Source of the DNA: Pirellulaceae bacterium
GTDB lineage: Bacteria > Planctomycetota > Planctomycetia > Pirellulales > Pirellulaceae
Assembly: GCA_024102795.1 (NCBI GenBank)
Contig: JAGFJK010000170.1
Coordinates: 1-63,487 of the forward strand
Direction: 5' to 3'
DNA length: 63,487 bases
Shown: positions 41,561 through 60,907 of the stretch, one piece after another
Numbering within the stretch: the first letter of the stretch is position 1
Layout of the letters: every line of letters starts with the position of its first letter
Notes under the pieces: generated by a model
The model's input: the letters and a program-made list of their open reading frames with translations, nothing else
Databases searched by the model: none
Told to the model about the DNA's origin: nothing
Program-made: the position numbers and the translations under genes

Positions 41561-41586
41561 AACGCAGCCAGTAGTGTTATCGTCGA

Positions 41587-41615: not shown

Positions 41616-41640
41616 GCTCTCCCCTCACGTTTTCTCGCTA

Positions 41641-42183: not shown

Positions 42184-42190
42184 GGGTCGT

Positions 42191-43208: not shown

Positions 43209-45044
43209 TCACCGGTGGTGAGCCACGACCCACTGGCCGATTGCGCGGCCGGCGGCCAGGCCCGCGGCGCTGTCGAAGCCGAAGTGAATGCCGCCATAAA
43301 CGCGGCTGTGGCTGGCCTCGTCCGCGGCCTGGGCGAAACTGTGGAACGAGCGCGTCAGGATCTGTTCGCTGGCCAGCGGGCGTTGCGTGAAGCCGCTGTG
43401 GCCATCCATTCGGCTGCGGAACGACACGTTGTCGCCCAGCAGGTGTGCCAGCACGACTTCGGCCGCTCCGCTGAACGTGCTGTGCCCCGAGGTGTACGTG
43501 GGAAACGGCGGCGTGCGGATCAGCGGCTGCCAGGCAGGGTCAGCCGACGTGGCCGGGTTGCCGTCCAGCGCCGCCTGGCGAATGGCGTCGATGGGCCGCC
43601 AGAGTTCGTAGGCGTACTTGGCGTCCCAGCACGAGATGCCCGCGTCCGCCAGGGCCATGTTCAGCAGGGCGAACAGCCGGGCGTTCTCAGCCAGCGTGCG
43701 GTCTTGAGCCACCACCACGTCGGCGGCAATCTGGTTCCAGTGGCCGGGTGGAGTGGACGTCCCGCCGCCATCCGCCCAGAACAGGGCGATGTCCGTCTGG
43801 TCGGCCGTGCGAACGTTACTGTTCAGACCGCCCAGCGTCATGACTTCATTCACCGCGGCCGCGTATTCCCCACTCGACAGTGCCGGGGGCGGCGCGGGCC
43901 GGAACTGGTCGCCGCTGGTCAGGGCAAAGGGAGTGACTTGCGGCCACTGTGGTAACAGCGGCGGAATGTAATCAGGAAACGTGCGGTTCCAGTCGCCCGC
44001 GTCGGTGCCTGGAGTGTAGGTGACCAGGGCTTCGGCCCCATCTTCCGCGCGCCAGGCCAGGATCGCATCACCCACCTGGCGTCCGAACTCCAAGCCCAAC
44101 GCTCGGGCCGTTTCATCGGGCACCGTGGCCAGCGATTCGCTCAAGGCCGCATCCAGCAACGCCCGCTCGTCGGGCTCCTGATACAGTTGGCCGGCGACGC
44201 GGTGGGCTGCTGCGGATGCCGCGGCCACCGGCGAAGCACCAGCGGGAGCCTGCAAATCCGCATGGACAGGTTGGTGTGTGCCTTCGATCGCCTGGACCGC
44301 GTCGTGCATCGCTACGTGTACCATCGCCAGGTTGCGGGCCACCACGGGCGGCGGCGACGTGACGATGCGGTTGGGATAGGGATCTTGGGAAACCGTTGTC
44401 CAGTCGCGGACAATGGTCAGCAGGGTTGCATTCCAGTCCAGAATCACGTCGCCTCGCACGATGGTCCGCTGGACCGCTCCACCACGAAACTGCGGGTCGG
44501 CGGCCACGATCTGGACATCCGCCGAACCCGTCGCAATCTGGATGTCGAACTGGAATTGACCCGCCGCGTCGGCGGTGGTGAGCCATGACCGCTCGGCCGC
44601 CGACAGCCGCAGCCGCGTGCCGGGCGACGTCTGCCCGCGAACCGTTACCTCCGACTCCAGCACCACGCCGTTGCCATTGGGATCGGACTGCGGCGCGAGG
44701 CTGGCTACCAGCGGCACGCTGCCAGATCCGACCTCATTGAGCTGGTTCACGACCAGCAGGGCGTCGAGCGGCGAGCTTTGCCCGTCACCGCTGACGTCGA
44801 CCATGGTCCGCGGCGCCGCTGCGCCACTGGCCAGGCTGCGCGCGCCGTGCAGATTCAGATCATGAATTACCACCAGCGCGTCCACCGGCGCCACCAGCCC
44901 GTCGTCGTTCACGTCGAACGGGTTGAAGGCGTTGTGGAAATCGGCGGCCAGGAGCGCACGAGGTTCGAGCCGCTCGATCGCGCTCTTCCGCGATCGAGCG
45001 ATACGAGAACCAGGTTGTATTGACCTCGGCGTGAAAGGCGCCAC
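43209..45044 (-). CDS. exported vanadium haloperoxidase/PAP2-family protein with dockerin-like repeats
   Basis: 611 residues from a GTG at 45044. The choice rests on AGAAGG seven bases upstream, inside the end of the YD gene. The N-terminus has IERLEPRALLAAD, the planctomycete LEPR sorting-type motif, then two dockerin-like calcium motifs (DVNDDGLVAPVDALVVIHDL and DVSGDGQSSPLDALLVVNQL). A beta-sandwich linker follows. The C-terminal domain has all vanadate/phosphate ligands: Lys476 in KYAYELWRP, TSGHS with His521, and SRVYGGIH with His587. These proteins oxidise halides or remove phosphate. It is almost certainly co-translated with the giant gene. Confidence 0.85.
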   Translation of the reverse strand: MAPFTPRSIQPGSRIARSRKSAIERLEPRALLAADFHNAFNPFDVNDDGLVAPVDALVVIHDLNLHGARSLASGAAAPRTMVDVSGDGQSSPLDALLVVNQLNEVGSGSVPLVASLAPQSDPNGNGVVLESEVTVRGQTSPGTRLRLSAAERSWLTTADAAGQFQFDIQIATGSADVQIVAADPQFRGGAVQRTIVRGDVILDWNATLLTIVRDWTTVSQDPYPNRIVTSPPPVVARNLAMVHVAMHDAVQAIEGTHQPVHADLQAPAGASPVAAASAAAHRVAGQLYQEPDERALLDAALSESLATVPDETARALGLEFGRQVGDAILAWRAEDGAEALVTYTPGTDAGDWNRTFPDYIPPLLPQWPQVTPFALTSGDQFRPAPPPALSSGEYAAAVNEVMTLGGLNSNVRTADQTDIALFWADGGGTSTPPGHWNQIAADVVVAQDRTLAENARLFALLNMALADAGISCWDAKYAYELWRPIDAIRQAALDGNPATSADPAWQPLIRTPPFPTYTSGHSTFSGAAEVVLAHLLGDNVSFRSRMDGHSGFTQRPLASEQILTRSFHSFAQAADEASHSRVYGGIHFGFDSAAGLAAGRAIGQWVVAHHR

Positions 45045-45048
45045 GACG

Positions 45049-48000
45049 TCACCTTCTGGTACCGTTCGGACCGCCGGGGCCCTGGAAGTGATCCACGGCG
45101 GAATTGATTCCCCAGCCCCACAGAATGCCTTCGCCAATCACCTTGGCCGGGCTGGTGTAGTTGTTGACGAACGGAAACTTGAAGCCTTCCCAAGCCGATC
45201 TCAAAAACCCTGTCCCGGAGTGATAATGCGATCCGAACTCCGCCAGTCCCTCCTCCACGGCCTTGGCAATCGGACTGAGATGATAGAATGCCTCCTGGGG
45301 ACCTTTCAGAACGCGGGGCAGTTGCCAGTAGATGTTGTAGTGCACCCGCTCGTGGAGAATCGTCTTGACGGTCTCGTCCCAACTCAGGTCCTTATTGATC
45401 AGAATCACTCCCTTGTATGTGATTCCCTGCCAGCCCGGATCGGGAGCTTGTGGCTTGCCAGTGTTCTGCAGAAACCATCGCCGGTAACCGTTGTCATCCA
45501 CGAGCAGATGCGGTACCTTTCCCGCCTCCTTGACCACTTCCGCGGAGAAGGGTCTCAGCGGCACTCCGCCCTTGGAATACTTCGGCAATTGCATCAGCAG
45601 TTGGCTGCCTGCCTTGCTCACAAAACCCGGCAGCTTCACTGTCGGCACATATTCCCACGTGACATCCGTCTTGGGATTGTTGATTCGCGGATCCCAGTCG
45701 GGATCGCCCGGACCCGGAAGGTGGTATCCCCCAGCACCTCTGGCCAAGGGTGCATCCACGATGTCTCCGTCCTCGGTGACGACGATTGCGAACGGCTTAC
45801 CGCCGCGGAGGTAAGCCTGGTGGCCGTCGACCGGCGGGAGCCAGATGATCTTGTCGCGCATCCCCTGCTGCGGCGTGCCGCCGGGACTTCCGTGCGTCGC
45901 ACCACCACCCAATGTCGGCGTCCCACCGGCGCCTTGGCTCGTGCCGCCACCGACTCCACCCGTGGAAACTCCTCCACTCAGGCCGCCACCAGGCGGGGGT
46001 TGAGAAACAGGTGCGGTGGACGGCGTCTGGCTGATTCCCGTCCACTGTCGCATGGGTGGCCTCCTCACCGAAACAGAGACACCGCCACGCAGTGGACTTC
46101 CGCCACGCACTGGCGCCGTAATTGGGATCAGCGGAGGCAAATAGATCAGCGGTGGTGGCGGAGGAGGAGGCGGCGGAGGCGGATCGTCGTCGGGTTCGTC
46201 GTCCGGATCATCACCGTTTTTCGGAGGCGGACAACTGTCTCCACCTGGCGGCGGCGGAGGCGGGTCGTCACCGCCCGGGGGCGGAGGAGGAGGCGGCTGG
46301 TACGGCACGTCCTCGGAGATGCCGCCCGGAATTGGCCCGGCGGGGTCATACATCGGCGTCTGCGGCACGAGGCCCGGCACGCCGCCGCCGCCACCGGCAC
46401 CGCCACTGCCACCATAAGCCGTGGCCTGCCCCTGCAATGTGATTAAACCGGACGGGTCCGTCATCACGGTCGGCTCATTGCCCACATACCGGTACAGGTT
46501 GGCGTCGTCCGCGCCGAAGCCGATCGGGTCCTCCGAAATAAAGCGCCCCACGGCCGGATCGTAGTACCGGGCTCGATAGTACAGCAACCCGCTCTCGTCA
46601 TCCCGCTCGCGACCCGTGTAAGCAAACATGTGGTCGACCGAGGCGTTCGACTCGGACGTGATCCGGCCGAAGCTGTCATAGGTCAGGTGGTTCACCACAC
46701 TGCCAGTGGAATCGACCAGGTCGCGAACCGATCCTTGATGATCGGTCAGGGGCCACAGGACATCGCCTTGAGCGTCCTCGTCGGCCAGGATCATGTCCAC
46801 GGCTGGACCATGCAGGTAGCGATGCGTCAGGTTCCCCTGGCCGTCGAACTCCAGCGCGATGTGCTCGCCGTCGTAAACGAATCGCTCGACGTCCGCCGCC
46901 AACGGCCCGTCGCCGTCGGCGTCCACCGCCTTGGCGATCCGCTTGTCGAACACGTCGTACGCATATTCGGTGCGCGCCACGACGATGCCACCCACCTCTT
47001 CGACCACGCTTGTCAGGCGATTGCGATGGTCCCAGGCGTATTCGGTAACATCGCCGGTGGCGATTTCCGTCCGGGAAGTCCGGTTGCCTTCCGCATCGTA
47101 CGTGTAATTGTACGTCCCGTCCGTGAGCAGCCGATTGTCGTCGCCCGTCTGGTAGCCCGCGTTGGTCCGGTTGCCGTTGTCGTCGTAGCTATACGTCTCG
47201 TCATCCTGCCAGGAATGATCGGCCGACAGCAACTGGCCTCGCGCGTCGTACGTGTAGTCGCTCGTGCCGTCCGGCGAAGTCGCCTGCAAAAGCCGGTTGG
47301 CGCTGTCGAACGTCCAGGTGTAGGCCGCGATTGACTGGCCGCCGTCGGTGTGAGCCAGCTCGGTCAGCCGGCCGCCGATGTCGTAGGTGAACTGCGTTTG
47401 GACAACCGGCAGCGCGCCGGCCAGATCGGCGAACCTCGCAATGCTCCGCAACTGGCTGGCCGCGTCGTAGCCAAAGTCGACACGCTTCGGGCTGACCCCA
47501 GGGCCGCTCTGCGAGATGCCCGTCATGCGGTCGAGCGGATCGAACACAAAGCCCAGCGTGGCTCCCGTGGCGCCGTTGATGGTTTCCCCTCGACTGATCG
47601 GCCGGCTGGCGGCGTCGTAGGCGTACAGGAATTCCACCACCGGAACGCCTGGCGTGCCGGCGTTCGACAGGTTGGTAGTGCGTCCCTCCAGGTCGTAGGT
47701 GAACGCGTAGTGCGAGTCGTCGTCGCCGGCCGCAAGCAACTGGTCTGCCGCGTCGAATTGAAAATACAGCGTCTTGATGGTCTGGTTGCCGGCATCCAGC
47801 CAGTTCTCCGCCGTGACCCGGTCGAGCGCGTCGTAGGTGTACTCGGTGCGGCGGCCGTTGCGGTCCACCATGGAGGTCAGATTGTGGGCCGCGTCATAGC
47901 CGTAGCTGCGAGTGCCACCGCTCTCGTCCGTCGCCTGGGTCCGGCGATTCAGCGCATCATAAACGTAGCTCGTCGTGTTGCCGACTGCGTCGTGCACCTC

Positions 48001-51000
48001 CAGCAGGTTGCCCACCGGGTCGAAGACCAGTGACGTCACGGCATCGTTCGCGTCCGTGATACTTGTCTGGCGGTACAAGTCGTCGTAGCCCAACCGCGTG
48101 ACCTGGTCCAGCGGGTTGGTCGTGGAAGTCAGTCGGCTGGCCGCGTCATACTCGTAGGTGCTGGTATTCCCCAGCGGGTCTGTCGCCGCGACCAGCCGGT
48201 TGAGCGCGTCGAATTGCGATTGACTCACCCGGTTCAATTGATCGCGATAGCTCAGCAGGTTGCCCACGGCGTCGTAGGAGTAGGACTGCTGGCCGCCCAG
48301 GGCATCGGTGATTCCCGTCCGGCGGTCCAGGGCGTCGTAGGAGTATGTCGTGACGTGGCTGAGCGGATCGGCAATCGAAGTCATGTTCCCGACCGCGTCG
48401 TAGGCCATCGTCGTCTGGTTGCCGAGCGGAGTCTGAACGCGGGTCAGCCGGTCGAGCGCGTCGTACATATAGCTGCTGGTGCGGCCGATTTCGTCGGTCC
48501 TGGTCTTGACGTTCCCCACGGCGTCGTAGGTGTAACTCGATTCCCCGCCGAGCGCGTCGGTGATCCTGGTGATGCGATCCAGTTTGTCGTACACCAGTTG
48601 CGTGACGCGGCCCAACTCGTCGCTGGTGCTGGTCAGGTTTCCCTTGCCGTCGTAAGTCAGACCGACCACGCCGCCCAGGGCGTTGGTGCTGCTGGCAATC
48701 CGGTCCAAGGCATCGTAGGCGAAGGTCGTCACTCGACCGAGCTGGTCGGTATGCGACGTGGCGTTGCCCACCGCGTCATAAGCGTAGCTGACCACTCCGG
48801 CCAGCGCGTCCGTGACGCTGCTCAGCCGGTTCAGCGCGTCGTAGCCGAACGACGTGGTGATGCCGAGCTGATCGCTGACCGAGGTGCGGTTGTCGACCGC
48901 GTCGTAGCCGATATTGACCTGCCCGCCCAGCGCATCGGTCACCCGCACCAGGCGATTAAGCGCGTCGTAAGTATAGATCGCGGGCCGACCGAGCCGATCA
49001 ACGCTCGACGCCAGGTTGCCGGTGGCGTCATAGCTGTAATTCGAGACGTTGCCCAGTGCATCGGTGGTTGCGACGTGGCGATTAAGGGCGTCGAAGTCGT
49101 ACCGAGTCACCCTTCCCAGTTCGTCGGTCATGGCCGCCATGTTGCCGTTGCCGTCGTACTGATACAGGGTACTCTGACCCAAGGCATCGGTGGTTCGGGT
49201 GAGGCGGTTGATGGCGTCGTAGCCAAAACTCGTGGTCCGGTTTTCGGCGTCGGTGGCGGCCAGCAGATTGCCGACCGCATCGTACGTGAATCGAGAAATA
49301 CCCCCTTCCGCGTCGGTGACACGCGTCAACCGGTTGAGCTTGTCATAGGCCAGCAGGGTGAAGTTCCCGCGTTTGTCGGTCGCCTTGGTAATGTTCCCCT
49401 CGGCGTCGTACTCCAGCCGGACCGTATTATTCAACGGGTCGGTCGTCCGCGTCACGCGGTGCAGGGGATCGTACTGGATCGTTGTCGTGCGATTGAGCCT
49501 GTCCGTGCTGCTGATCACGTACCCCATCGCGTCGTAGGCAAAGCGGCTTGTGCCGGACAAGGCATCGGTGACGGAGGTGACTCGGTCCAGGTTGTCGTAC
49601 GCCGCCGCCGTGACGCGTCCCAGTTCGTCGGTCACCGTCAGCACGTTGCCGACCGCGTCATAGGTATAACTGACAGTGCCGTTCAGGGCGTCTGTGACGG
49701 TCGTCATCCGATCGAGGTTGTCGTAGCCGTACTGGGTGACTCGGCCGAGCTGGTCCGTCATGCCCGTAAGATTGCTGGCCTTGTCGTGCGAATAGCGGAT
49801 CACGCCGTCAAGCGCATCGGTCATCGACGTCAGACGATACAGTTCATCATACGCATACTTCGTGACGTTGCCGTTGCTGTCGCTGAAGGCGGTCACGTGG
49901 TTTCGGGCGTCGTACTTCCAAGTCTCCCTCAGCCCCAGCGCGTCGACGCTCGACGTCAGCCGTTCGCGGGCGTCGTAGGTGAACGTCGAGACGTGGCCGT
50001 TGGCGTCCGTGATTGACGTGATGTTGTTGCCGGCGTCGTATGCCAGGCGGGTGACGTTTCCCAGCGCGTCGGTAACTCGCGTCACGCGGTTCCGCAGGTC
50101 GTAGGCATAGGTCGTCTTGTTCCCCAGCCGGTCGGTAATCGCCGTCACGTTGCCGCGATCGTCGTACTGGTAGCGAGTGACTTTGCCGTCCTGGTCGGTA
50201 ACGCTGCCGAGGCGGTAGCGCGGGTCGTATTCGAATTCGAGCGAGTTACCCAAGGCGTCGGTCTGGGTGAGCATCGTGCCCGAGGCGTCGTAGGTGAACG
50301 AATACTGCGGCGAGGTCAGCGGCCCGGCGCCGTCGGGGTCGGGCTGCGTGATGCCCGTCAGCAGGTTGAGCCGGTTGTACGCATACTCGCTGCGCCGTCC
50401 CAACTCGTCGGTGAAAGCCGTCACGTTGCCGGCCGCATCGTACTCGTACTGGACGCGGACCTCATCGGCCGTTCCCTGGGCGTAGGTCACTTCGATTGGT
50501 CTGCCGAGCGGATCGTAGTCGTAGTCCGTGACTCGCCCCAGCGGGTCGGTCACCGTGTCGAGCAGCCCCCGGCTGGTATAGGTAAACGAAGTCGTGATGT
50601 CGTCTCCGCCGCCGATGGAGCCAATCACTCGCGTTTCGCCCAGCTTGTTGCCGGTGGCCGGGTCGATCGTGTAAAGCGTGAGGTTGCCCAGTTCGTCACG
50701 GATCGAGGTGACCTTGTTGAAGGTAGAGTCGTAGGCATACTGCCGCGAACCGGTGCCCGCCGCGGGCACTTCCGTGTTGAGGGTGATCTCGGCGCGCGAG
50801 GTCTGCCGCTGCGAGACTCGCAGGCCATAACTGTCCGACTGCTGCAGCGAGGCGTCAACCACCACGATCAGCTCGCCGGTGTAGGTCGGGACGTAGGTAA
50901 AATCATTGCCGGCCGCCCGGTCGAGCAGAAACGTCCCGACGGGGTTGTACAAGCGAGCGCGGGAGCCAAAAGTGACCGTCGTGGTGTCGAAGTACAGCGT

Positions 51001-54000
51001 CTGTCCGGCGATGGCGGCGACGCGATACACATCCGCCTCGACGCCGCGGCTGACAAAGTCGTTGACTTCAACGTCGAACGCGAGCTGAGGAGCCGCGACG
51101 ACGTCCAGAACTCGGAAGCTGACCGAACCTGCCGTAGACTGCTGGCCAATCATCAGCAGATAGTCGCCAGTTTCCCTCAGCACCACCGGGCCGGCTCCAA
51201 ATCCACCTGTCACATTCAAGATGGATTCGCCACTGGGACTGACGAGCGTCATGCGGGGATCCTCGCCGAGAGTGTGCCCCGCCCAGTCGAAGTAGAGTTG
51301 CCGGCCGGCAGTTCCGCTGAACCGGTAGACCTGTGTTTCGTACGCCTCGTTCAGCGTGGCAGTGGTCAGCACTTGAACCGGCGCCCGGAGTGCGGCGGAA
51401 GCGTTCACGAATCGGAAGCGAAAGTTCCCACCGCCGACGACCGACAAGGTGTACATTCCGGAGAAGGGCAGGGCAATCGGCGCGGGCTCGGCGCTGCCGA
51501 AGGTGCCGATAACATTGTTGTTTGGATCCCGCAAGGTGTAGGTGATGCCGGCCTGGTTCGACAACTGGTCGATCAGGACCCGCGTGCCCGCCGATCCGGC
51601 GAACGTGAAATCCTGTGGAACGGCCGTCGCCGTGCCCGAATGAATGACGTTGAAACCACTGGCGGCGACCGGCGCGTCGCTGAGGTCATCCATGCGGAAC
51701 TGATAGGCAATGTCGCTCGAGCTGCCTCCGCTCAAGATCAGGATGTACGAACCATTCGCCGGCAACGTGAGTTCGAAATCGCTCGCCAGTTGCGACTGGT
51801 TGAGCAGCCGTCCGCCAGGGGCAACCAGGCGCCACGTTCCGCTGGCGGGAGTGGTCCCCAGATCGTCCACTCGAAGGCGCTGCCCCGCTGCGCCGTCCAC
51901 TCGGAACGCAACTGTGGCCTGGCCCGGAGAAATGGTTCCGCTAGGCGTCGCGCCTGGAGTCACTGCCGGGGAGGTCTCCAGGTTGAGCAAACGGAATTCA
52001 TAACCGGCGGTCGTCGCCCCGTTTCCGTCGAGTTCCAGCCGGTACATGCCGCCTTCCGGCAAAGCCACGAACCAGTTTGTCGCGGCGTTTTCGTTCAAGA
52101 GCGTCACGCCGCTGGGGCTCACGATCCGCACCGTCAGTCCGGCCTGCGTGCCGGGCAGGCTATCGAACCAGATCCGAGTTCCCGCGCTGCCCGAAAAAGT
52201 ATGGACGTCGGCTTCGCCCAGTCGGTCAACGGTTCCGTTGATCGAGGCGCCGAACGAAATTGGCTGCGCCGTCCGCTGAGTGACTACCGTGCGGAAGCGG
52301 TAGTCGATCGGCGTGTCACTCGCGCCGGAAAGCAGGAGCGTGTACGTACCGCTGGTGGGCAGGTCAAGTTCAAAGTCAGTTCCCAGGTTCTGGCTGGCCA
52401 GCGCCTGGTTGTTCGGACCCAGCAGTTGCCAGGTTCCCGCGGCCGACACCAGCCCGTCGAAGTACATGTGCTGGCCGGCTGTGCCGGCGAAACCGTAGGC
52501 CCGAGTCGAACGGCCCGGGTTGAGCGGTGCGACGATCTGCGTCTCGGCGGGCAGGAAGGTGGGATTGGTCACATCCACGACCGTCAGGACGTAATTCCCC
52601 GTGCCCGCCTGAAACCCATATACGACTAATTGATACGTACCGCTCTCGGACAGCCTGATCAGCGCCGAATCGCCATTCGGGTTTCCAGCGGTAATGATGT
52701 AGCGACCGGTGGGAGATATCAGATGGTACTGGAGCTCCGTCGCCCCCGCTCGTCCGGCATCGACCTGGATCTGCTGGCCGGCTGAGGCGGAGAACGTGTG
52801 GATGTCGACTTCCCCGGGGCTGGAAATGGCGTTGGATACCGGCAGGCTGAGCGTCAGGTTGGCGCGAGTGACGGCCGCCGAACGGAGCGAAAGATCATAG
52901 GTTCCCAGGCCCGAAGTGGTGTCGAAGACGACCAGTTGGTAAACCCCGCTCTCTTCCGCCACAAAGGCACCGGAGTCAAAGCGCGCGTCGCCGTTGTTGA
53001 TCAACAGGTCGCCCGTGGGGCTGATCAGATGGTAGCGCACGCCATCACCGCCGCTGAAGGCGCTATCCACCACCAGCCGCTGTCCGACGGTCACGGGAAG
53101 CGAGTAAATATCGACTTCCCCGGCCTGGGAAATCGCCCCGCTGATTTGAGCGTCGAGGAGCGTGGCGGCGCGGTTGACCATGGTGGACCGCAGGGCCACG
53201 TCGTAATTGCCGGTGACGTCGCCCGAACCAAAGACCACCATCTGGTAGGTGCCCGTTTCTTCCAGGAAGAACGCATCCGTATCAAAGCGGGCGTCGCCGT
53301 TGGTCACGACGTAGTTGCCGCGGGGGTCGATCAGGTGATACCGCACTCCAGTGACCACGGCCGCATTGTCGAAGATCACCCGTTGGCCGGCCGAGGCGCT
53401 GAAGCGGAATACGTCCACCTCGCCGGGCGTCGATATATTGCCGGACAGGGAGTCATCCAGCGCGGATTCGAAGACTTGAATGGATGCCCGATTCATCTGG
53501 AACTGGTAGCTGCCCGTGCTGGTGGTCGAGCCGTACACGATCAACTGGTAGGTGCCGCTTTCTTCCAACTGCACCGGCGATGAATCGAACCGCAGGTCGC
53601 CGTTAATGACAACATATGCCCCCTGGGGGCTCAGCCAGTGGTAGCGCAGACCATGAGTCGCCGACGCGGCATTGAACATCACGCGTTCACCCGCCAGTCC
53701 TTCGAACGGGTAAATGTCCACATCGCCCGGATTGACCAGCGAACTGGAGACCGTCTGATCGTACATCAGCGGCGCCGTGCTGACGTTCGCGGTGCCGATC
53801 CGGACGCTGTACGGGCCGGTGCCGCCCGCGGGCGGGAAGATCGACAGTTGATAGATTCCCGATTCCTCCAATTGAAAGCCATCGCTGTCGAACCGCAGAT
53901 CGCCGTTGTTGATGACGTAGTCGCCCGTGGGACTGATCAGATGATAACGCAGTGTCTGCGGCACGCTTATTGCGTCGAAAATCACGCGTTGCCCCGCCGT

Positions 54001-57000
54001 GCCGTTGAATGTGTAAACGTCGCTCTCGCCGAGTACCGCGATCTCGCCGCTGATCGGGCTATCCAGCGCCGCGGCGGTGACGGTCACCGTCGACGGAACC
54101 AGGCGGAAGTTGTAGTTGCCCGTGGCATTCCCACTGCCGAAGACCACGATGTGATACTGCCCCGTTTCTCGCAACTGGAAGGCGTTGCCGTCGAAACGCA
54201 TGTCGGCCGCATTGAGGGCAAGTTGCCCGGAGGGCGCGACCAGGTGCAGGCGCAGATCGGTATTGGAAATCGAATCGAAGGTCAGGATGTCGCCGGTCGA
54301 ACCGCCAAAGGTATAGAAATCGGCCTCGCCCGCCGCCGAAATGCCGCCAGCAATCGTGCCCGCCTCCAGGTTCACCGGCGTGCCGGTGGTGTGCGGGTCG
54401 AGCAGCAGGGCCGTATAGCTGCCGGTGCTGGAGGCCGTATCGCCGGCAATCGTCAAGGTGTACTCGCCCGATCGGGGCGCGACCGCCATCCGATCCTGCA
54501 TGTCATCGGAAAGAAAGACCGTTTGCCCGCCGGGAGCGGTCAACGTGGCCCGCAGTGCGCCGGGACCCGTGGCCTGGAAGTTGAGTAGCGTCCCGGCGTT
54601 GATGTCGTAGTTGTACGTATGGCTCTGACCGGCTGCGATCGTGCCGCTGTGCGCAGCGCCCAGTCCGCTGGGAGCGACGGGCGCGTCCGAGATGTCGCTG
54701 ACGGTAAAATCGAAGCTGCCAGCCGCCGCGGCCGTCAGCAGCAGCACGTAGTTGCCGTCATCGGGAATCGCCGCCGTGAAGTCGGTGCCCAGCGTCACGT
54801 CGCTGAGGACGTACCCCCCTTCGCTGATCAGATACCAGCGTCCGGCCAGCGAGGACTGGCTGTCGAACTGCAGCCGCTGACCGGCACTGGCAGGCAACCG
54901 ATACATCGCGGCGCCGTTGACGCTCAGGCTGGCACTGCTGCCCGCTCCGAGTGTGATTGTCTGGGCGGCCGCGTCGAGCACCTGGAAGGCATAGCTGCCG
55001 GTCGTTTGGCCGTTGCCGTAGACGTGCAATTGATACAATCCGGTTTCGGTGAGCGTGAACACTCCTCGATCGGCATCCAAGAGCGCGAAATTGACGGGAT
55101 ACGCGCCGAGCGGACTGACCAGGTCGAACCGGATATCGGCCGACCGCGCCAGCCCGTCCACGTAGATCTGCTGACCCAGCGTGCCGAAGAAGGTGTAGCT
55201 GTCGCGCTCGCCAGGCACATCGATGCTGCCATTGGTGACCGCGTTCAAGCTCAATGCCGCCGTGCTGACCGGCGCCGTGCCGAGCTGGAACGAGTAGGTT
55301 CCGGTCGGCTGGCCGTTGCCGAAGACGAGCAACTGGTACTCGCCCGCTTCGTCCAGGACCAGCGGCCCGGCATCGCTCTGGTAGTACAGGAAGTTGACCA
55401 GGTATTCGCCGGTAGGGCCAATCAGCGCGGTGCGGATGTCCGGCGATGTGCCACCGCGATTGTCCAGAAAGATCCGGTCGCCCACCGCGCCGGTGAAGGT
55501 GTAAATGTCCAGATCCCCGGGCTTGTCGATGCTGCCCGTCACCGTCGCATTGAGCGTCAAGGGTGAAGTCGTGACGGTGGCATCCACCAGCCGAAAGTTG
55601 TACTGGCCCGTGTCGTCGCCATTGCCGACCACGATGAACTGGTACTGGCCGTCCTGATCGAGCGTCAAGGGTCCCTGGTCGTTATCGCGAAATGTGAAGT
55701 TGATCAGGTACTCGCCCGTGGGCCCGACCAGGCTGTAGCGCACATCCCCGCCGGACCCTCCCAGACTGTCCAGAAACAGACGCTCGCCGATCGCACCCTG
55801 GAACGTGTAAATGTCACGCTCGCCAGGTTCATCGATCGAGCCACTGATCGGTGCGTCGTAGACGAGTGCCTGGGTCGTGGTGGCCGGCGTGACAAATCGC
55901 AAGTCGTAGGAGCCCGTGCCGTCGCCATTGCCAACGACGATCAGTTGATAGTCTCCTGTTTCGGTCAAATAGAACGGTCCGCGGTCACTGCTGAAGGCCA
56001 AGAAATTGACCAGGTACGCGCCGCTCGGCGAGACCAGCGTGTATCGCAGGTCGCCGCCTGAACTCGACAGGGCATCGACGAAGATTGCGTCTCCCACCGC
56101 CCCATGGAAACGGTAAATGTCGCGTTCACCCGGTTCGGCAATCGTACCCGAAATCAGAGTATCCAGAGGCTGGGGCAGAATGGTTTCCGTCGGCGTCACC
56201 ATGCGGAATCGGAACGTGCCCGTGGCATCGCCGTTGCCTTCCAGGATCACGGTGTAGGTGCCCGCCTCGTCCAGCACGAACGGCCCGCGGCCCGCGCTCG
56301 AACTGACGAAGTTGACCAGGTATTCCCCCGACGGACCGATGAATGTCATTCGCAGGTCACCTCCCGTGGTGGCCAACGCGTCGTAGAACACCATGTCTCC
56401 GGCTCCGGCCGGGAATCGATACACCATCCGCTCGCCCGGCACGCCGATCGCGCCGCTCACCTCGGTATCGAGCGGCAGCGAGATTTCGGTAGTGGGAGCC
56501 AGGTAGGCGCGAAAATTGTAGTCCCCGGTCGAACCGGTGTTGCCCTCCAGACGCAATGTGTACTGGCCGAGTTCGCTGAGCTGGAAGGGTCCCCGATCCG
56601 TGCCCGCATTCGAAAAGTTGTTCAACACCACTCCACTTGGTGACAGCAGCGACATGCGAATGTCGCCCGGAGGGTCTGAGAACGCGTCGTAGAAAATCCG
56701 CTCGCCGGGCCGGCCCAGAAACGCGAATTCGTCAACTTCGCCGGCGATCGCAATCGTTCCCAGGACACTGGTCCCCGAGATCTCGTCGCGCACGTTGACC
56801 ACATTGCCGTCGGCGTCGTACGTGTAGAACGTCAGGTGACCGCGCGGATCGATTGCCCGTGTGACCTGGTTCTGGCTGTTGCGATCGTAACTCGACAGAG
56901 TCGATTCACCGTCGCGTCCTGAAATCACTTGCCCCGCACGGTCCAGCAGAAACGTCGTCACATTGCCCAAGGCGTCGGCGATGGTCGCACGCGCGGGGCC

Positions 57001-60000
57001 CAGGGCCTGGGCTCGCGGAGCGGCAAGCGGATTGAGCGTTGCCTCGCGCGGCATCAGCCCGGCCTGCTGCGGCGCGCTGAACCTGCGTACCGTGCCGTCA
57101 GCGTAGGTGCGTTGCGTTATCCGGCCCGCAAAATCGTAGGTCAACTGCTCGGTGTTGCCGCGGCGGTCCGTCTTGGCGATCAGGTGATGGTTCGTGTCGT
57201 AACGATAGGTCTGCGAAACTCCATCCGGATCGCGGGCCTCGATCAGGTTTCCCGCGGCATCATAGATCAGTTCCGTGGTCTGGTTGCCCGGCTCGGTAAA
57301 GCTCGACACGCGGTCGCCGCTGTAGGTGAACGTCGTCTGCAATCCCGCGGGATCGGTGATTCTTTCCAGCCGTCCGCCGGCGTCATAGCTGTAAGTGGTC
57401 TGGTTGGAGTTGCGGTCGACGACCGTCGCCAGTTGGTGATCGCCGTTGAACGTGAACACCATCTGGTCGCGAGTCGTGCGGCGGAAAACGCCCGCCACCT
57501 TCTCCAGCCGCGAGAAATCGCCTGGAGGAGATTGGTAGACCGTTCCTCCAGCATCCGGGGCACGGAACAGCGACTCGCGGCCATTGCCGTCGATCAGCAG
57601 AACCGATCCGTCCGCGTTCTCCACCAGGTTCTGCCAGCCCGCCAGACTCCACCCGGCGCCGAAGGGACTTTGCCTCAGGTTCACATGCAGCAAGTGGCTG
57701 GACTGGACCGATGTCGCACCGACCAGTCGGTCGTCCGAGATCCGCAGCAGTCCCGTCTCCAGGTTGTAGTCGTACTTGCCGCTGGGCAGGGACCGCAAAT
57801 CAAGCTGCAGGGCGGCTTGCGCGGCGCCGCCGTCCTCGGGCAATCGCCAGAAATGCTGTCCGCCGCTGAGTCCCATGGTTCCAGCCGGCGCGCCAGGGAT
57901 CTCGTAGCTGAAGCTGCCGGAACTGACGGTCACCTTGGCGGTCAGCAATGTGTTGGAATCGGGAACCGTGTTGCTGTAACCCAAATGCACGATCGGGCTG
58001 CCGTCACCACGCATCGAGTCGTAGACCAGCGAAGTGCCGCGGACGCCACCGTTTACCGAATAGCCGGCCGTCGTTTTAAGCGCTTGCACACTGCCTGAAT
58101 GGTCATCGATTTCGACTGGCGTATCCTGAGGCAGCCGGTTCGGAGGCGGATAGATGGGAATCAGAGGTGGAATCGGTGGCGGCTCCACAAACGACCCCGG
58201 GATAAACAGAGGCTCCGAAATCGGTTCAAAGTAGGGGATGAGCTCTATCCAATCGAGGCCCACGTCTCCCCAGCCACCTTGGCCACCGTAGCCGCCACCA
58301 CCGCCTCCGCCACCACCACCTCCTCCTCCTCCGCCGCCACCACCTCCTCCTCCGCCACCACCACCACCTCCTCCGCCGCCACACTCGTCGCAGTCGTCAT
58401 CGGGATTGCGCGGATCGTCGTCGGGATCGTCGGGCGTGGGAGGCGGTGGAGCGACAAAGTGCCAACTACTGTTGCGGACACCGCCCGAGATGGTCTGGAT
58501 CACGGTCCCGTCGGCGCTGACCTGGGCGTCCCCCACATCGTCAAATTCTCCGGTTACCGGGTTGATTGACCAGAGGTCCAGCCGCGTGCCGGGAAGATAG
58601 CCGGAGCGATTGGGAAGCGCCAGGGGAGCCGGCGACGCAAACACCATCTCGCCCGGCTGGATGGTGACCACCATGTCGGGAATCAGATTGGCGGGCAGGG
58701 CGGCCGGCGTGAGGTCGACGGGTACTTCGGTGATGCTCAACTCACCGCTGAATAATGTTCCCTGCTGGTTCATCAACGTGCCGGCGGCGACAAACACTTC
58801 CGCTCCCTCAATCGCCGGCGTGGTGACTACCGTGTCGAGGGCCGGGTCGATCGTCACTGCGTTGGTCATGTCCAGAACCGGCAGGTAGATTGGCCGACCC
58901 AAGACGTTGTTGACCCCCAACTCCAGCTCGCGCCCAAACAGGAAGGGGAGCTTTTCGGCAATGAACGGATAGGCGTCTGGTCCGGGAAACAATTCGCCGC
59001 GAATCTTCAGCGTGTCGCTGGGCGGCACGCCCCAGCCCAGGTCGAGCGTAAAGGAACCGTCGGCGGCGGTCAGCGTCTGCACGGCCCCGATTTCGACCAG
59101 GATGTTCGCCAGCGGCTGGCCGGTCGTCTCCAAGACCAAGCCGGAAACGCGGGTCGTGGTCAAGGGGTCGGGATTGACGGTAAGTTCCACCGAACGCTGA
59201 GCACTCAGCACGCCATCGTTGACAATGACCTGGAACGAGTATGTTCCGACGTCACCGGCCAACGGTTGAAATACGAGCTGGCCGCTGCTGGTAATCATCC
59301 CTTTGGGCAGCCTGGTCGGGGCCACCAAGGAAAACAGCAAGGCATCACCATCTTCGTCCGCCGCGACCAGGGGCATCTCAAGCCTTCCACCGGCGGTTAC
59401 CACCAGCGGCGGAACAGCCTGCAAGGTCGGCGCGTGATTGGGGCCTGCCAGGACCTGGGGAGCCAGCCGAAACGGCGCGTTGCCGGCAACCGCGAACTCC
59501 ACCAGCAGCGGGCTCGAAACGGCCCCGGCCGCCAGCCCGCCGCTGCCCAGCACGGGCCGGAAACTGACAAACGGAACCCCAGGCGAGACTTCCCCTGAAG
59601 GATTCAACAGCGTCACCGTCGCCGGCAGGCCGGGAATGGCAACGATCACGTTGGCTCCCGCCGGGAGCCCCTGGTTATCCAGCCTGAACTCGGCGCGATA
59701 GCGCCCCGACTCGGCCAGATAACGGACGTTCTCGGCGCGGACCAAAATGTCCGGGTGTTCCGTCAGCGCGGCAGGGTTGATGCCGCTGGTGGTGGCGGCT
59801 ACCTCGACGCCAGCCGGGAAGACCGGCGTCTGCTCCTCGGCGGCAATCACGTCGTTGCTCAGCAGCCTGAATGTGACGCGGCTACCCAAGTCGTTATCGT
59901 GCTGCAGCATCTGGAACTTCAACTGGCCCGTGTCGTACCCGCTGACGCGCGACAGGTCCAGTTCCAGAAACTGCCCGTCCCAACGAGCGAGGCCAGGCAG

Positions 60001-60573
60001 ATAGTCTGCGCGAGTTCCCGACAGCGCAAACAGGGACGTTCCCGCCACGCCCCGGTCCAGCAGCGTCTGGTCTGTCTGGTCGGGATCCACCAGATAAACT
60101 GAAAACGTATCCTCCAGGGCCCCGTTATCCGCCGTATTGAACTGGGGCGTGATCTCCAGGCGGTACCTGCGCTGTCCCGCAAGCTGGCCCAGCGTCACGG
60201 TGACAAACGATTCGGACGCCAGGCCGCCACGGTCTTCGACCCGCCGCACGCCAGCGCCGGCGGCGTTCAGGTGATTGACCACCCGCAGCACGTCATTGGG
60301 CGCAATCAACTGGTCGCCGGAAGTGTCGTAGTAGGCGCTGGCTTCATCCTTGACGTTCGGCAGCATGCGCGCCCCGCGCGCATTGAGGTCGTTGATGACC
60401 ACCAAGGCGTCGACCGGGGCCAGGATGCCATCCGAGTTGACATCCAGGGCGTCGACCGGGTTTCGCCAGTCGACCGCCATCAAGAGCCTCTTTTCCAGGG
60501 ATTCCAACCGTGAGCGGCGCGTGACGGACCGAGGCCGGCGCAAACGCCGGGCGCGACGTTGGGGAGCTTGCAT
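45049..60573 (-). CDS. giant YD/RHS-repeat surface protein with PPC-like insert and metallopeptidase-like tip
   Basis: 5174 residues from the ATG at 60573. In order: a basic leader with LESLEKRLLMA (LEPR-type motif); dockerin-like repeats (38-110); an Ig-like putative domain (about 380-445); a carboxypeptidase-regulatory-like domain (about 470-530); a run of 30 glycines (732-761); a first YD block (about 890-1265); about 20 PPC-like beta-sandwich repeats of 100 residues (1265-3258); a second YD block (3268-4670) including 39 consecutive units of exactly 21 residues; the RHS core (YYRARYYDPAVGRFISEDP, about 4660-4690); a Pro/Gly-rich linker; and a unique C-terminus with HERVH at 5074-5078 and EGLAE 29 residues later. 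It is probably exported and surface-bound. The RHS shell normally encloses and releases its C-terminal domain. The haloperoxidase gene follows after 4 nt. Confidence 0.9.
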   Translation of the reverse strand: MQAPQRRARRLRRPRSVTRRSRLESLEKRLLMAVDWRNPVDALDVNSDGILAPVDALVVINDLNARGARMLPNVKDEASAYYDTSGDQLIAPNDVLRVVNHLNAAGAGVRRVEDRGGLASESFVTVTLGQLAGQRRYRLEITPQFNTADNGALEDTFSVYLVDPDQTDQTLLDRGVAGTSLFALSGTRADYLPGLARWDGQFLELDLSRVSGYDTGQLKFQMLQHDNDLGSRVTFRLLSNDVIAAEEQTPVFPAGVEVAATTSGINPAALTEHPDILVRAENVRYLAESGRYRAEFRLDNQGLPAGANVIVAIPGLPATVTLLNPSGEVSPGVPFVSFRPVLGSGGLAAGAVSSPLLVEFAVAGNAPFRLAPQVLAGPNHAPTLQAVPPLVVTAGGRLEMPLVAADEDGDALLFSLVAPTRLPKGMITSSGQLVFQPLAGDVGTYSFQVIVNDGVLSAQRSVELTVNPDPLTTTRVSGLVLETTGQPLANILVEIGAVQTLTAADGSFTLDLGWGVPPSDTLKIRGELFPGPDAYPFIAEKLPFLFGRELELGVNNVLGRPIYLPVLDMTNAVTIDPALDTVVTTPAIEGAEVFVAAGTLMNQQGTLFSGELSITEVPVDLTPAALPANLIPDMVVTIQPGEMVFASPAPLALPNRSGYLPGTRLDLWSINPVTGEFDDVGDAQVSADGTVIQTISGGVRNSSWHFVAPPPPTPDDPDDDPRNPDDDCDECGGGGGGGGGGGGGGGGGGGGGGGGGGGGGGYGGQGGWGDVGLDWIELIPYFEPISEPLFIPGSFVEPPPIPPLIPIYPPPNRLPQDTPVEIDDHSGSVQALKTTAGYSVNGGVRGTSLVYDSMRGDGSPIVHLGYSNTVPDSNTLLTAKVTVSSGSFSYEIPGAPAGTMGLSGGQHFWRLPEDGGAAQAALQLDLRSLPSGKYDYNLETGLLRISDDRLVGATSVQSSHLLHVNLRQSPFGAGWSLAGWQNLVENADGSVLLIDGNGRESLFRAPDAGGTVYQSPPGDFSRLEKVAGVFRRTTRDQMVFTFNGDHQLATVVDRNSNQTTYSYDAGGRLERITDPAGLQTTFTYSGDRVSSFTEPGNQTTELIYDAAGNLIEARDPDGVSQTYRYDTNHHLIAKTDRRGNTEQLTYDFAGRITQRTYADGTVRRFSAPQQAGLMPREATLNPLAAPRAQALGPARATIADALGNVTTFLLDRAGQVISGRDGESTLSSYDRNSQNQVTRAIDPRGHLTFYTYDADGNVVNVRDEISGTSVLGTIAIAGEVDEFAFLGRPGERIFYDAFSDPPGDIRMSLLSPSGVVLNNFSNAGTDRGPFQLSELGQYTLRLEGNTGSTGDYNFRAYLAPTTEISLPLDTEVSGAIGVPGERMVYRFPAGAGDMVFYDALATTGGDLRMTFIGPSGEYLVNFVSSSAGRGPFVLDEAGTYTVILEGNGDATGTFRFRMVTPTETILPQPLDTLISGTIAEPGERDIYRFHGAVGDAIFVDALSSSGGDLRYTLVSPSGAYLVNFLAFSSDRGPFYLTETGDYQLIVVGNGDGTGSYDLRFVTPATTTQALVYDAPISGSIDEPGERDIYTFQGAIGERLFLDSLGGSGGDVRYSLVGPTGEYLINFTFRDNDQGPLTLDQDGQYQFIVVGNGDDTGQYNFRLVDATVTTSPLTLNATVTGSIDKPGDLDIYTFTGAVGDRIFLDNRGGTSPDIRTALIGPTGEYLVNFLYYQSDAGPLVLDEAGEYQLLVFGNGQPTGTYSFQLGTAPVSTAALSLNAVTNGSIDVPGERDSYTFFGTLGQQIYVDGLARSADIRFDLVSPLGAYPVNFALLDADRGVFTLTETGLYQLHVYGNGQTTGSYAFQVLDAAAQTITLGAGSSASLSVNGAAMYRLPASAGQRLQFDSQSSLAGRWYLISEGGYVLSDVTLGTDFTAAIPDDGNYVLLLTAAAAGSFDFTVSDISDAPVAPSGLGAAHSGTIAAGQSHTYNYDINAGTLLNFQATGPGALRATLTAPGGQTVFLSDDMQDRMAVAPRSGEYTLTIAGDTASSTGSYTALLLDPHTTGTPVNLEAGTIAGGISAAGEADFYTFGGSTGDILTFDSISNTDLRLHLVAPSGQLALNAADMRFDGNAFQLRETGQYHIVVFGSGNATGNYNFRLVPSTVTVTAAALDSPISGEIAVLGESDVYTFNGTAGQRVIFDAISVPQTLRYHLISPTGDYVINNGDLRFDSDGFQLEESGIYQLSIFPPAGGTGPYSVRIGTANVSTAPLMYDQTVSSSLVNPGDVDIYPFEGLAGERVMFNAASATHGLRYHWLSPQGAYVVINGDLRFDSSPVQLEESGTYQLIVYGSTTSTGSYQFQMNRASIQVFESALDDSLSGNISTPGEVDVFRFSASAGQRVIFDNAAVVTGVRYHLIDPRGNYVVTNGDARFDTDAFFLEETGTYQMVVFGSGDVTGNYDVALRSTMVNRAATLLDAQISGAISQAGEVDIYSLPVTVGQRLVVDSAFSGGDGVRYHLISPTGDLLINNGDARFDSGAFVAEESGVYQLVVFDTTSGLGTYDLSLRSAAVTRANLTLSLPVSNAISSPGEVDIHTFSASAGQQIQVDAGRAGATELQYHLISPTGRYIITAGNPNGDSALIRLSESGTYQLVVYGFQAGTGNYVLTVVDVTNPTFLPAETQIVAPLNPGRSTRAYGFAGTAGQHMYFDGLVSAAGTWQLLGPNNQALASQNLGTDFELDLPTSGTYTLLLSGASDTPIDYRFRTVVTQRTAQPISFGASINGTVDRLGEADVHTFSGSAGTRIWFDSLPGTQAGLTVRIVSPSGVTLLNENAATNWFVALPEGGMYRLELDGNGATTAGYEFRLLNLETSPAVTPGATPSGTISPGQATVAFRVDGAAGQRLRVDDLGTTPASGTWRLVAPGGRLLNQSQLASDFELTLPANGSYILILSGGSSSDIAYQFRMDDLSDAPVAASGFNVIHSGTATAVPQDFTFAGSAGTRVLIDQLSNQAGITYTLRDPNNNVIGTFGSAEPAPIALPFSGMYTLSVVGGGNFRFRFVNASAALRAPVQVLTTATLNEAYETQVYRFSGTAGRQLYFDWAGHTLGEDPRMTLVSPSGESILNVTGGFGAGPVVLRETGDYLLMIGQQSTAGSVSFRVLDVVAAPQLAFDVEVNDFVSRGVEADVYRVAAIAGQTLYFDTTTVTFGSRARLYNPVGTFLLDRAAGNDFTYVPTYTGELIVVVDASLQQSDSYGLRVSQRQTSRAEITLNTEVPAAGTGSRQYAYDSTFNKVTSIRDELGNLTLYTIDPATGNKLGETRVIGSIGGGDDITTSFTYTSRGLLDTVTDPLGRVTDYDYDPLGRPIEVTYAQGTADEVRVQYEYDAAGNVTAFTDELGRRSEYAYNRLNLLTGITQPDPDGAGPLTSPQYSFTYDASGTMLTQTDALGNSLEFEYDPRYRLGSVTDQDGKVTRYQYDDRGNVTAITDRLGNKTTYAYDLRNRVTRVTDALGNVTRLAYDAGNNITSITDANGHVSTFTYDARERLTSSVDALGLRETWKYDARNHVTAFSDSNGNVTKYAYDELYRLTSMTDALDGVIRYSHDKASNLTGMTDQLGRVTQYGYDNLDRMTTVTDALNGTVSYTYDAVGNVLTVTDELGRVTAAAYDNLDRVTSVTDALSGTSRFAYDAMGYVISSTDRLNRTTTIQYDPLHRVTRTTDPLNNTVRLEYDAEGNITKATDKRGNFTLLAYDKLNRLTRVTDAEGGISRFTYDAVGNLLAATDAENRTTSFGYDAINRLTRTTDALGQSTLYQYDGNGNMAAMTDELGRVTRYDFDALNRHVATTDALGNVSNYSYDATGNLASSVDRLGRPAIYTYDALNRLVRVTDALGGQVNIGYDAVDNRTSVSDQLGITTSFGYDALNRLSSVTDALAGVVSYAYDAVGNATSHTDQLGRVTTFAYDALDRIASSTNALGGVVGLTYDGKGNLTSTSDELGRVTQLVYDKLDRITRITDALGGESSYTYDAVGNVKTRTDEIGRTSSYMYDALDRLTRVQTPLGNQTTMAYDAVGNMTSIADPLSHVTTYSYDALDRRTGITDALGGQQSYSYDAVGNLLSYRDQLNRVSQSQFDALNRLVAATDPLGNTSTYEYDAASRLTSTTNPLDQVTRLGYDDLYRQTSITDANDAVTSLVFDPVGNLLEVHDAVGNTTSYVYDALNRRTQATDESGGTRSYGYDAAHNLTSMVDRNGRRTEYTYDALDRVTAENWLDAGNQTIKTLYFQFDAADQLLAAGDDDSHYAFTYDLEGRTTNLSNAGTPGVPVVEFLYAYDAASRPISRGETINGATGATLGFVFDPLDRMTGISQSGPGVSPKRVDFGYDAASQLRSIARFADLAGALPVVQTQFTYDIGGRLTELAHTDGGQSIAAYTWTFDSANRLLQATSPDGTSDYTYDARGQLLSADHSWQDDETYSYDDNGNRTNAGYQTGDDNRLLTDGTYNYTYDAEGNRTSRTEIATGDVTEYAWDHRNRLTSVVEEVGGIVVARTEYAYDVFDKRIAKAVDADGDGPLAADVERFVYDGEHIALEFDGQGNLTHRYLHGPAVDMILADEDAQGDVLWPLTDHQGSVRDLVDSTGSVVNHLTYDSFGRITSESNASVDHMFAYTGRERDDESGLLYYRARYYDPAVGRFISEDPIGFGADDANLYRYVGNEPTVMTDPSGLITLQGQATAYGGSGGAGGGGGVPGLVPQTPMYDPAGPIPGGISEDVPYQPPPPPPPGGDDPPPPPPGGDSCPPPKNGDDPDDEPDDDPPPPPPPPPPPLIYLPPLIPITAPVRGGSPLRGGVSVSVRRPPMRQWTGISQTPSTAPVSQPPPGGGLSGGVSTGGVGGGTSQGAGGTPTLGGGATHGSPGGTPQQGMRDKIIWLPPVDGHQAYLRGGKPFAIVVTEDGDIVDAPLARGAGGYHLPGPGDPDWDPRINNPKTDVTWEYVPTVKLPGFVSKAGSQLLMQLPKYSKGGVPLRPFSAEVVKEAGKVPHLLVDDNGYRRWFLQNTGKPQAPDPGWQGITYKGVILINKDLSWDETVKTILHERVHYNIYWQLPRVLKGPQEAFYHLSPIAKAVEEGLAEFGSHYHSGTGFLRSAWEGFKFPFVNNYTSPAKVIGEGILWGWGINSAVDHFQGPGGPNGTRR
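45052..45057 (-). promoter_or_regulatory. ribosome binding site of the haloperoxidase gene inside the YD gene end
   Basis: AGAAGG in the last codons of the YD gene, directly before its TGA and seven bases before the GTG at 45044. It decides this start over the ATG at 45137, which lies inside the upstream gene, and predicts translational coupling. Confidence 0.6.
47840..50302 (-). repeat. 39 consecutive 63-bp YD repeats with 126-bp super-period
   Basis: Within the YD gene, units of exactly 21 codons follow each other without any insertion or deletion. Odd and even units alternate between a YDAVGN...TDELGRVT type and a YDALNR...TDALGG type, giving a 42-residue (126-bp) higher-order period. This points to growth by duplication of unit pairs. 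Confidence 0.85.
50800..56775 (-). repeat. about 20 PPC-like repeats inserted in the YD region
   Basis: About twenty units of roughly 100 codons each, with the core pattern G..D.Y.F.G..G....D, then L..P.G, then E.G.Y.L.V.G....TG.Y.F. They resemble bacterial pre-peptidase C-terminal (PPC) domains. The array begins after DADGNVVNVRDEISGT and ends before YDSTFNKVTSIRDELGN, so it splits the YD repeat series. Confidence 0.8.
58291..58380 (-). repeat. 30-codon polyglycine tract
   Basis: Thirty consecutive GGN codons (GGC, GGT, GGA mixed) between a Cys codon and a Tyr codon in the YD gene. On the plus strand it appears as (NCC)30. Mixed codons show that it is an old tract rather than a fresh slippage product. 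It separates the N-terminal domains from the first YD block as a flexible linker. Confidence 0.92.
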
Positions 60574-60613
60574 GGAAGTGAACTGCCAGAGGTTGCAGAA
60601 TAGATCGGGCCAT

Positions 60614-60641
60614 ATCCTAGCAGCGCCAGATTCGCTGGCAA
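60614..60641 (-). promoter_or_regulatory. predicted promoter of the giant YD gene
   Basis: Minus strand TTGCCA (60641-60636), 16 bp, TAGGAT (60619-60614). Start of transcription is expected near 60607, giving a leader of about 34 nt to the ATG at 60573. The remaining part of the 334-bp gap to the PurA-like gene stop (60908) shows nothing else. Confidence 0.45.
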
Positions 60642-60907
60642 GCATCGCCGTTCCGGAAAATTCCTCAATCGACGCCGCCCCTTTTCCGTTGGCAACTGGC
60701 TCCGCGCGTGCGTCGCGCCAAACCAATCTGGCGGATGCAAGTGGCTGGCGGTCCGTGTTTCATTCCCCAGCGAGCTGGTACCATGCCTGCCAAACTGCGT
60801 AGAGGGGTCGCATCAAGGACGCGGACCATGGACTTCGGAGCGTGTGCGCGCAAAGCTGCGTATGAGCGCGCGGCGGCGCTCGCACTCGCGGCACCCGGAC
60901 TGCGGAT

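What the first reader, a model, noticed from the sequence alone, without database searches (positions are those of the whole stretch)
45049..60573. Giant YD/RHS protein whose repeat shell is split by a 2000-residue PPC-like array
Seen directly: one frame of 5174 codons with a first YD block, then about twenty 100-residue beta-sandwich repeats, then a second YD block and RHS core. RHS/YD repeats are known to form a closed beta-shell around a C-terminal cargo. A PPC array of this size inserted between two YD blocks would need to bulge out of the shell or join two shells. I know of no described protein with this layout. The N-terminal sorting-type motif and dockerin-like repeats suggest anchoring at the cell surface.
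Basis: partly seen in the sequence, partly recalled or inferred. Interest (0 to 1): 0.85.

Follow-up and report, generated by a model that had tools for sequence, protein, structure and literature searches.

The report
Swappable module slot in toxin shell
A giant planctomycete protein carries twenty predicted beta-sandwich domains at one fixed point in its YD repeats, and relatives carry dissimilar domains or none at that same point, so the point is likely a swap site that changes what the outside of a predicted toxin-holding shell grips.

Summary
The layout is not unique. A profile of the first YD block, built without PPC sequence, shows that the junction is a conserved insertion slot. Of 152 proteins examined there, 20 have it empty, 118 hold inserts of 150+ residues in 16 sequence clusters (61 in the FG-GAP cluster, 23 in the PPC cluster), 5 are short and 9 unreadable. 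One pair is 85% and 88% identical over 792 residues on either side of the slot, yet one member holds 22 PPC domains and the other a dissimilar 216-residue insert. The window's genome has five such genes with at least two occupant types. An empty-slot relative is predicted to form a whole Rhs-type shell with a low-confidence loop at the slot. I read the array as an externally displayed, exchangeable gripping module (inferred). A haloperoxidase-like gene lies beside or fused to many of these genes. Domain insertion into YD shells is published (YenB, SGS1); a polymorphic slot was not found in ten searches of open papers.

The parts
45049..60573 (-). giant YD/PPC/YD gene, 5174 aa
   Evidence: one open frame; homologues with the same order
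60481..60507 (-). N-terminal LESLEKRLL motif (planctomycete LE..R.LL export/sorting-type motif, name recalled)
   Evidence: by eye a like motif in 7 of 11 database members, 7 of 7 members and the neighbour gene
60265..60444 (-). dockerin-type repeat, below Pfam cut-off
   Evidence: PF00404 20.9 bits (cut-off 22.9)
59182..59439 (-). Ig-like domain (Big_9)
   Evidence: PF17963 28.2 bits (cut-off 23.6)
59041..59148 (-). TTR-like (CarboxypepD_reg) domain, weak
   Evidence: PF13620 19.9 bits (cut-off 32.3)
58444..58968 (-). conserved domain between TTR-like and FN-plug (position of the TIP domain of teneurin-like proteins; homology not shown)
   Evidence: 140 domain hits of the TTR-to-this-domain stretch in my set; no PDB hit
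57574..58131 (-). FN-plug-like region up to the GAGW strand
56794..57570 (-). first YD block (YD1)
50743..56793 (-). insertion slot, 2017 aa, filled with the PPC array
   Evidence: flanks compared
50815..56775 (-). 20 PPC-type domains (residues 1267-3253)
46642..50742 (-). second YD block (YD2), about 31 repeats
46444..46680 (-). RHS-associated core domain
   Evidence: TIGR03696 86.1 bits (cut-off 32.5)
46447..46530 (-). DPIG..DPSG autoprotease-type motif
   Evidence: role from PMC13018210 and PMC6425310
45052..45861 (-). C-terminal tail, possible zinc-peptidase toxin (HERVH..EEGLAE; meaning recalled)
   Evidence: motif; no relative in 97 other genomes nor at E <= 0.01 in the protein database
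43209..45062 (-). neighbour gene directly downstream: dockerin plus PAP2/vanadium-haloperoxidase-type domain (start codon uncertain)
   Evidence: PF00404 and PF01569 above cut-off, PF17897 and PF22778 (VCPO) below theirs; KxxxxxxRP, SGH, SRxxxGxH motifs; fused or adjacent in relatives

Best explanation
The twenty PPC-type domains sit in a conserved insertion slot of a YD-repeat protein that is predicted to fold into a closed Rhs/teneurin-type shell, and they likely stand outside that shell as an exchangeable gripping arm while the C-terminal tail would be the enclosed, self-cleaved toxin. SHOWN by sequence: fixed slot, conserved flanks, many dissimilar occupants including none, replacement with shell flanks kept, core with the DPxG..DPxG motif, orphan C-terminus. 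PREDICTED: whole shell in an empty-slot relative, low-confidence (probably flexible) loop at the slot, PPC fold. INFERRED: secretion and surface display, the outward position of the array, adhesion to a target or matrix, autocleavage, toxicity of the tail, and joint action with the neighbouring haloperoxidase-like enzyme. In this reading the protein varies at two places independently: what it grips (slot) and what it delivers (C-terminus).
Against: No binding, secretion or toxicity experiment. No model contains both YD blocks with a filled slot; the window model has pTM 0.58, so domain placement is open. Whole-shell alignments have large rmsd (6.9-8.7 A for Rhs chains, up to 19.6 A for teneurins). 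The slot loop is not the only low-confidence stretch of the empty-slot model (also 48-63, 83-111, 361-388 and others). Most PPC units are not found by Pfam's PPC model. The tail has no relative, so its toxin role rests on position and one motif. No immunity gene was recognised; only a Pfam scan of the next genes was made. NCBIfam gives the neighbour no haloperoxidase model. Occupants follow descent in part (31 changes against 51-60 in 100 shuffles).
Confidence: 0.66

Rival explanations
1. The protein is a structural surface adhesin or matrix protein: shell, array and dockerin serve attachment, and the C-terminus is not a toxin.
For: Dockerin-like and Ig-like N-terminus; some C-termini are short or Gly/Pro-rich without a recognisable toxin (C461; P0072, 22 residues; L102 and L104); metazoan teneurins are adhesion receptors (PMC13018210).
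Against: My DPxG..DPxG pattern is found near the end of 9 of the 11 database members examined (none in P0004, P0005); P0151 ends in a non-specific endonuclease domain.
Confidence: 0.22
2. The slot is a neutral landing site: insertions there do no harm to the shell and have no common role.
For: Very different lengths (8 to 2722 residues) and dissimilar inserts, and empty slots, are tolerated; the 10-member cluster around the 217-residue insert has no Pfam name in the copy scanned.
Against: The two largest clusters (FG-GAP, PPC) and the LamG- and NIDO-like ones are of types usually linked to binding (recalled), and are in frame.
Confidence: 0.09
3. Two shells joined by a PPC linker.
For: YD repeats on both sides.
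Against: YD1 is about 260 residues; an empty-slot relative joins YD1 and YD2 directly and is predicted as one shell.
Confidence: 0.02
4. Assembly chimera.
For: The window is one contig of a 519-contig draft.
Against: Same order on another contig of this genome and in database proteins, with like junctions.
Confidence: 0.01

Closest known systems
Bacterial teneurin-like proteins (BiTLP, 9ifo; PMC13018210)
   Different: No NHL propeller between FN-plug and YD shell; a large insert one YD block later; that survey's six phyla do not include Planctomycetota or Cyanobacteriota (section read).
T6SS Rhs effectors (RhsA 7q97, 8qja, RhsP, Tse5)
   Same: Shell fold and core domain.
   Different: A domain array inside the YD blocks; Pfam shows no VgrG or PAAR in the first 1000 residues. 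Whether any T6SS Rhs effector has such an insert was not searched.
Tc toxin TcB-TcC / YenB-YenC2
   Same: A module inserted into the YD domain (PMC5851990 passage, PMC6425310 section); FG-GAP-type slot inserts match TcdB_toxin_midN in 7 of 35.
   Different: Single chain; the window's occupant is PPC; whether the two insertion sites coincide is not resolved.
Mosquito SGS1 (8fjp; PMC9935623)
   Same: Four domains, two of them Ig-like sandwiches, are inserted in the YD sequence and decorate the outside.
   Different: Single domains, not arrays; eukaryotic; no exchange at one site described in the parts read.
Giant extracellular PVC-superphylum protein with RHS and adhesin parts (PMC12057145, passages)
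   Same: Giant predicted extracellular protein combining RHS toxin-like and adhesion parts.
   Different: Its other domains are beta-helix/carbohydrate types; no insertion slot in the passages seen.

Membership tests
Rhs/YD-shell polymorphic toxin | YD/RHS repeats | tested here: met
   PF05593 and TIGR01643 far above cut-off on both sides of the array
Rhs/YD-shell polymorphic toxin | RHS core with DPxG..DPxG | tested here: met
   TIGR03696 86.1 bits; motif
Rhs/YD-shell polymorphic toxin | closed shell fold | tested here: inconclusive
   predicted for empty-slot relative L058; the window's whole shell is too long to fold here
Rhs/YD-shell polymorphic toxin | variable C-terminal toxin with immunity gene | tested here: inconclusive
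   tail is an orphan; toxicity untested; the next gene is haloperoxidase-like, no immunity gene recognised by a Pfam scan
Bacterial teneurin-like protein | FN-plug plus YD shell | tested here: met
   model match of plug and first YD block to 9ifo and metazoan teneurins
Bacterial teneurin-like protein | NHL propeller between FN-plug and shell | tested here: not met
   the A1 profile runs unbroken through that place in the window, columns 1-300 in 299 residues; therefore not filed as a TLP
Bacterial teneurin-like protein | TIP domain | tested here: inconclusive
   a conserved domain lies at that place but its profile has no PDB hit at E <= 1
Tc toxin B component | propeller inserted in the YD domain | tested here: not met
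   the window's slot holds PPC-type domains; other members carry FG-GAP
PPC domain (PF04151) | sequence model and fold | tested here: met

The most novel reading that the evidence does not exclude
A doubly polymorphic contact weapon: a constant YD shell whose side slot is a cassette site for interchangeable recognition modules (PPC arrays, FG-GAP propellers, LamG, NIDO and others), recombined independently of the C-terminal toxin, and deployed with a vanadium (or haem) haloperoxidase that works at the same surface, for example by oxidising the gripped target or the shell itself.
Probability: 0.33. Interest if true: 0.87.

Novelty: new variant of a known kind. Interest (0 to 1): 0.72.

Why it matters
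YD shells are known for swapping the toxin at their C-terminus. These data show a second swap site, within the YD repeats, with 16 sequence clusters of occupants and replacement between shells whose flanks are still 85-88% identical. That would separate 'what it grips' from 'what it delivers' in one polypeptide, and it offers a natural series (empty slot; FG-GAP inserts of stepped length; 4 to 25 PPC units) with which to test how teneurin-type shells acquired their binding domains. The repeated pairing with haloperoxidase-like enzymes is an untested functional link.

Tried and rejected
Considered and rejected: two joined shells (first YD block too small); chimera (recurs elsewhere); viral origin (46 candidate stretches in viral contigs, none a relative). 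A first motif scan was too strict and found 4 places; widened (22 places). A first shell alignment (A2) gave low identities for second-block fragments and was not used; A4 replaced it. The TTR/TIP profile found no solved structure. The C-terminal tail found no relative (NCBIfam none; Pfam none for its last 233 residues). Whether the slot coincides with the TcB propeller site or the SGS1 CBM site could not be settled, because the aligner gives end points only. SGS1 has about 442 shell residues between 391 and its CBM at 1345 (propeller 705-1216 subtracted), and our slot starts about 453 residues into the L058 model: a lead only. Position-by-position homology of PPC units between proteins is unclear: 12 of the 20 window units are most like another unit of the same protein, 8 most like a unit of one of the six other proteins compared.

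Literature: 10 searches listed no paper that I recognised as describing a polymorphic insertion slot in YD shells or a YD-shell/haloperoxidase link; only open-licence PMC papers are held and most listed papers were not opened. Seen: PMC13018210 (abstract, sections 6, 7, 10, passages), PMC6425310 (section 6, passages), PMC9935623 (section 7, passages), PMC5851990, PMC3482391 and PMC12057145 (passages). Others: listings only.

Full report
OBSERVATION. The frame 45049-60573 (-) is open for 5174 codons from an ATG. Pfam and NCBIfam find RHS/YD repeats before and after the middle section, a PPC domain in it, an RHS core (TIGR03696, 86.1 bits against 32.5) near the end, and Ig-like, dockerin-like and TTR-like domains at the start, the last two below cut-off. 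An iterated profile of one unit finds 20 PPC-type copies at residues 1267-3253, mean spacing 100.1, between YD x5 and YD x31.

NOT UNIQUE. A second gene in the same genome (C461, 3880 aa) has the same order with 18 PPC copies. Of 120 listed homologues (1077 hits among 1286 scored), 11 have YD-PPC(12-25)-YD. Many other listed proteins carry a PPC array far upstream of the YD block; those are a different layout. Of 98 genomes (own plus 97 relatives), 13, own included, match the 300-residue PPC query. In 15 members aligned over the junctions the flanks are alike on the upstream side; downstream, L021 departs where I cut it, because its slot runs on to residue 3113.

A GENERAL SLOT. To avoid bias I built profile A1 from the end of the FN-plug and the first YD block only, from eight PPC-slot proteins, and scanned one genome per species: 67 loci. 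In 51 of 67 the profile reaches its end with score 120 or more (16 dropped; 22 of the 51 are Cyanobacteriota and 14 Planctomycetota). What follows the first YD block differs: FG-GAP repeats, a 217-residue domain without Pfam match, NIDO-like, DUF4394-type propeller, jelly-roll-like, beta-helix-like (these last two judged by eye), PPC arrays, or nothing, in which case the second YD block starts after 8-23 residues. A further protein search from an empty-slot relative (4002 hits among 7985 scored, 120 listed) and the earlier sets gave 152 qualifying sequences among 357 examined. Adding six and removing six duplicates leaves 152: 20 empty (two of these, P0121 and L058, are the same protein), 5 with 30-149 residues, 9 without a readable second flank, and 118 with 150 or more. 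The 118 fall into 16 clusters by phmmer at 1e-5: 61 (FG-GAP), 23 (PPC, includes the window), 10, 6 (LamG-like by precomputed Pfam of several members), 3, 3 (NIDO-like), 2, 2 and eight singles. Two of the singles (L052, L101) look like divergent PPC-type arrays, so 16 overstates the number of folds. Near-duplicates among database proteins were not removed beyond the six.

REPLACEMENT. P0002 (slot: 22 PPC, 2237 residues) and L072 (slot: 216 residues, in another cluster) are 84.6% identical over 792 residues ending at the slot and 87.8% over 792 residues beginning after it. P0130 (NIDO-like) and L039 (FG-GAP) are 80.5% over 570 and 61.8% over 1148. On a quick LG+G4 tree of the flanks (136 proteins; dropped: P0121, L059, the 5 short and the 9 unreadable) the fewest changes are 43 for all 16 labels, 31 for six classes (122 proteins), 14 for PPC against the rest, and 8 for empty against filled. 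A hundred shuffles of the six-class labels need 51-60, so occupants follow descent in part. Branch supports were not examined, and the two divergent arrays were counted as 'not PPC'.

WITHIN GENOMES. The window's genome has five strong members (A1 E <= 1e-80): PPC x20, PPC x18, FG-GAP-type 760 and 732 residues, and a divergent array of 1554 residues; weaker hits also exist. In one search only 24 candidates per genome were scored, so members may be missed. FG-GAP-cluster inserts group at 361-449 (30), 711-776 (21) and 1049-1149 (5) residues, with five others (522, 550, 587, 812, 1394), as expected of one, two and three seven-bladed propellers (lengths; the propeller count is inference).

NEIGHBOUR. 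Directly downstream lies a dockerin plus PAP2/vanadium-haloperoxidase-type gene (PAP2 above cut-off, the two VCPO models below theirs; no NCBIfam haloperoxidase match) with KxxxxxxRP, SGH and SRxxxGxH motifs (meaning recalled). Its catalytic part matches in or near 11 of the 38 strong loci (two of them weak or cut: L032 at 32%, L049 39 residues) and 0 of the other 29, several of which are short contigs. In cyanobacterial members it is fused upstream of the shell (for example L035, L041, L067, L072; also database proteins P0002, P0151, P0161, P0209). Among 12 strong A1 genes in the 98 genomes, 4 (the window's included) have it within 10 kb. P0215 carries an animal-type haem peroxidase in the same upstream place, and P0122 starts with the end of one. 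No other gene was tested for linkage, so this is one association met in passing, not a screened one.

MECHANISM. Commitment: a secreted or surface-held shell carries a self-cleaved C-terminal cargo (motif shown; cleavage and toxicity inferred), with a slot that shows a binding module outside (outward position and binding inferred), replaced while the shell stays (shown). Collagenase domains of the PPC fold are called collagen-binding in the titles of matched entries; the ligand here is unknown. The window's C-terminal tail has a HERVH..EEGLAE motif (zinc-peptidase-like, recalled) and no relative.

AGAINST KNOWN SYSTEMS. A propeller splits the YD domain in YenB/YenC2 (PMC5851990, passage), and SGS1 carries four inserted domains outside its shell (PMC9935623); so insertion as such is known. 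In TcB and teneurin the outer propeller face binds the partner (PMC6425310). The protein is not a teneurin-like protein by that survey's definition, since NHL is absent. New here, as far as ten searches of open papers show, are the single conserved site with many alternative occupants, arrays of up to 25 domains in it, and replacement among near-identical shells.

Noticed in passing
L077, L079, L083, L084, L085, L087, L088, L089, L092: The A1 profile is split near columns 41-68 by about 220-705 residues, the place of the teneurin NHL domain (L085 has two PPC-type hits there); in the eight with a measured second slot that slot is 10-121 residues, as if one shell bears one external module. L056 and L064 have about 90-115 extra residues at the first place and a filled second slot.
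   Followed up: partly
window 43209-45062 (-): Haloperoxidase-like gene beside the giant gene; fused or adjacent in many slot proteins, with a haem peroxidase in its place in P0215.
   Followed up: partly
L027 (G032:C35) 8146-8148: A PPC-slot relative has an in-frame stop soon after the slot; the second YD block continues in the same frame as a separate open frame. Described only.
   Followed up: no
window 58283-58382: Gly-rich run of the protein before the FN-plug; the only tandem-repeat array that TRF reports in 44000-61500.
   Followed up: no
window 37056-42264: DabA-type inorganic carbon transporter gene with a proton-antiporter-type gene and an MpsC-domain gene on the same strand.
   Followed up: no
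slots of L048, L049, L050, L051, L067, L072: A 216-227-residue insert (motif NVLIVNG or ALIIS) shared by cyanobacteria and a Roseobacter contig; no Pfam match for the L050 copy.
   Followed up: no
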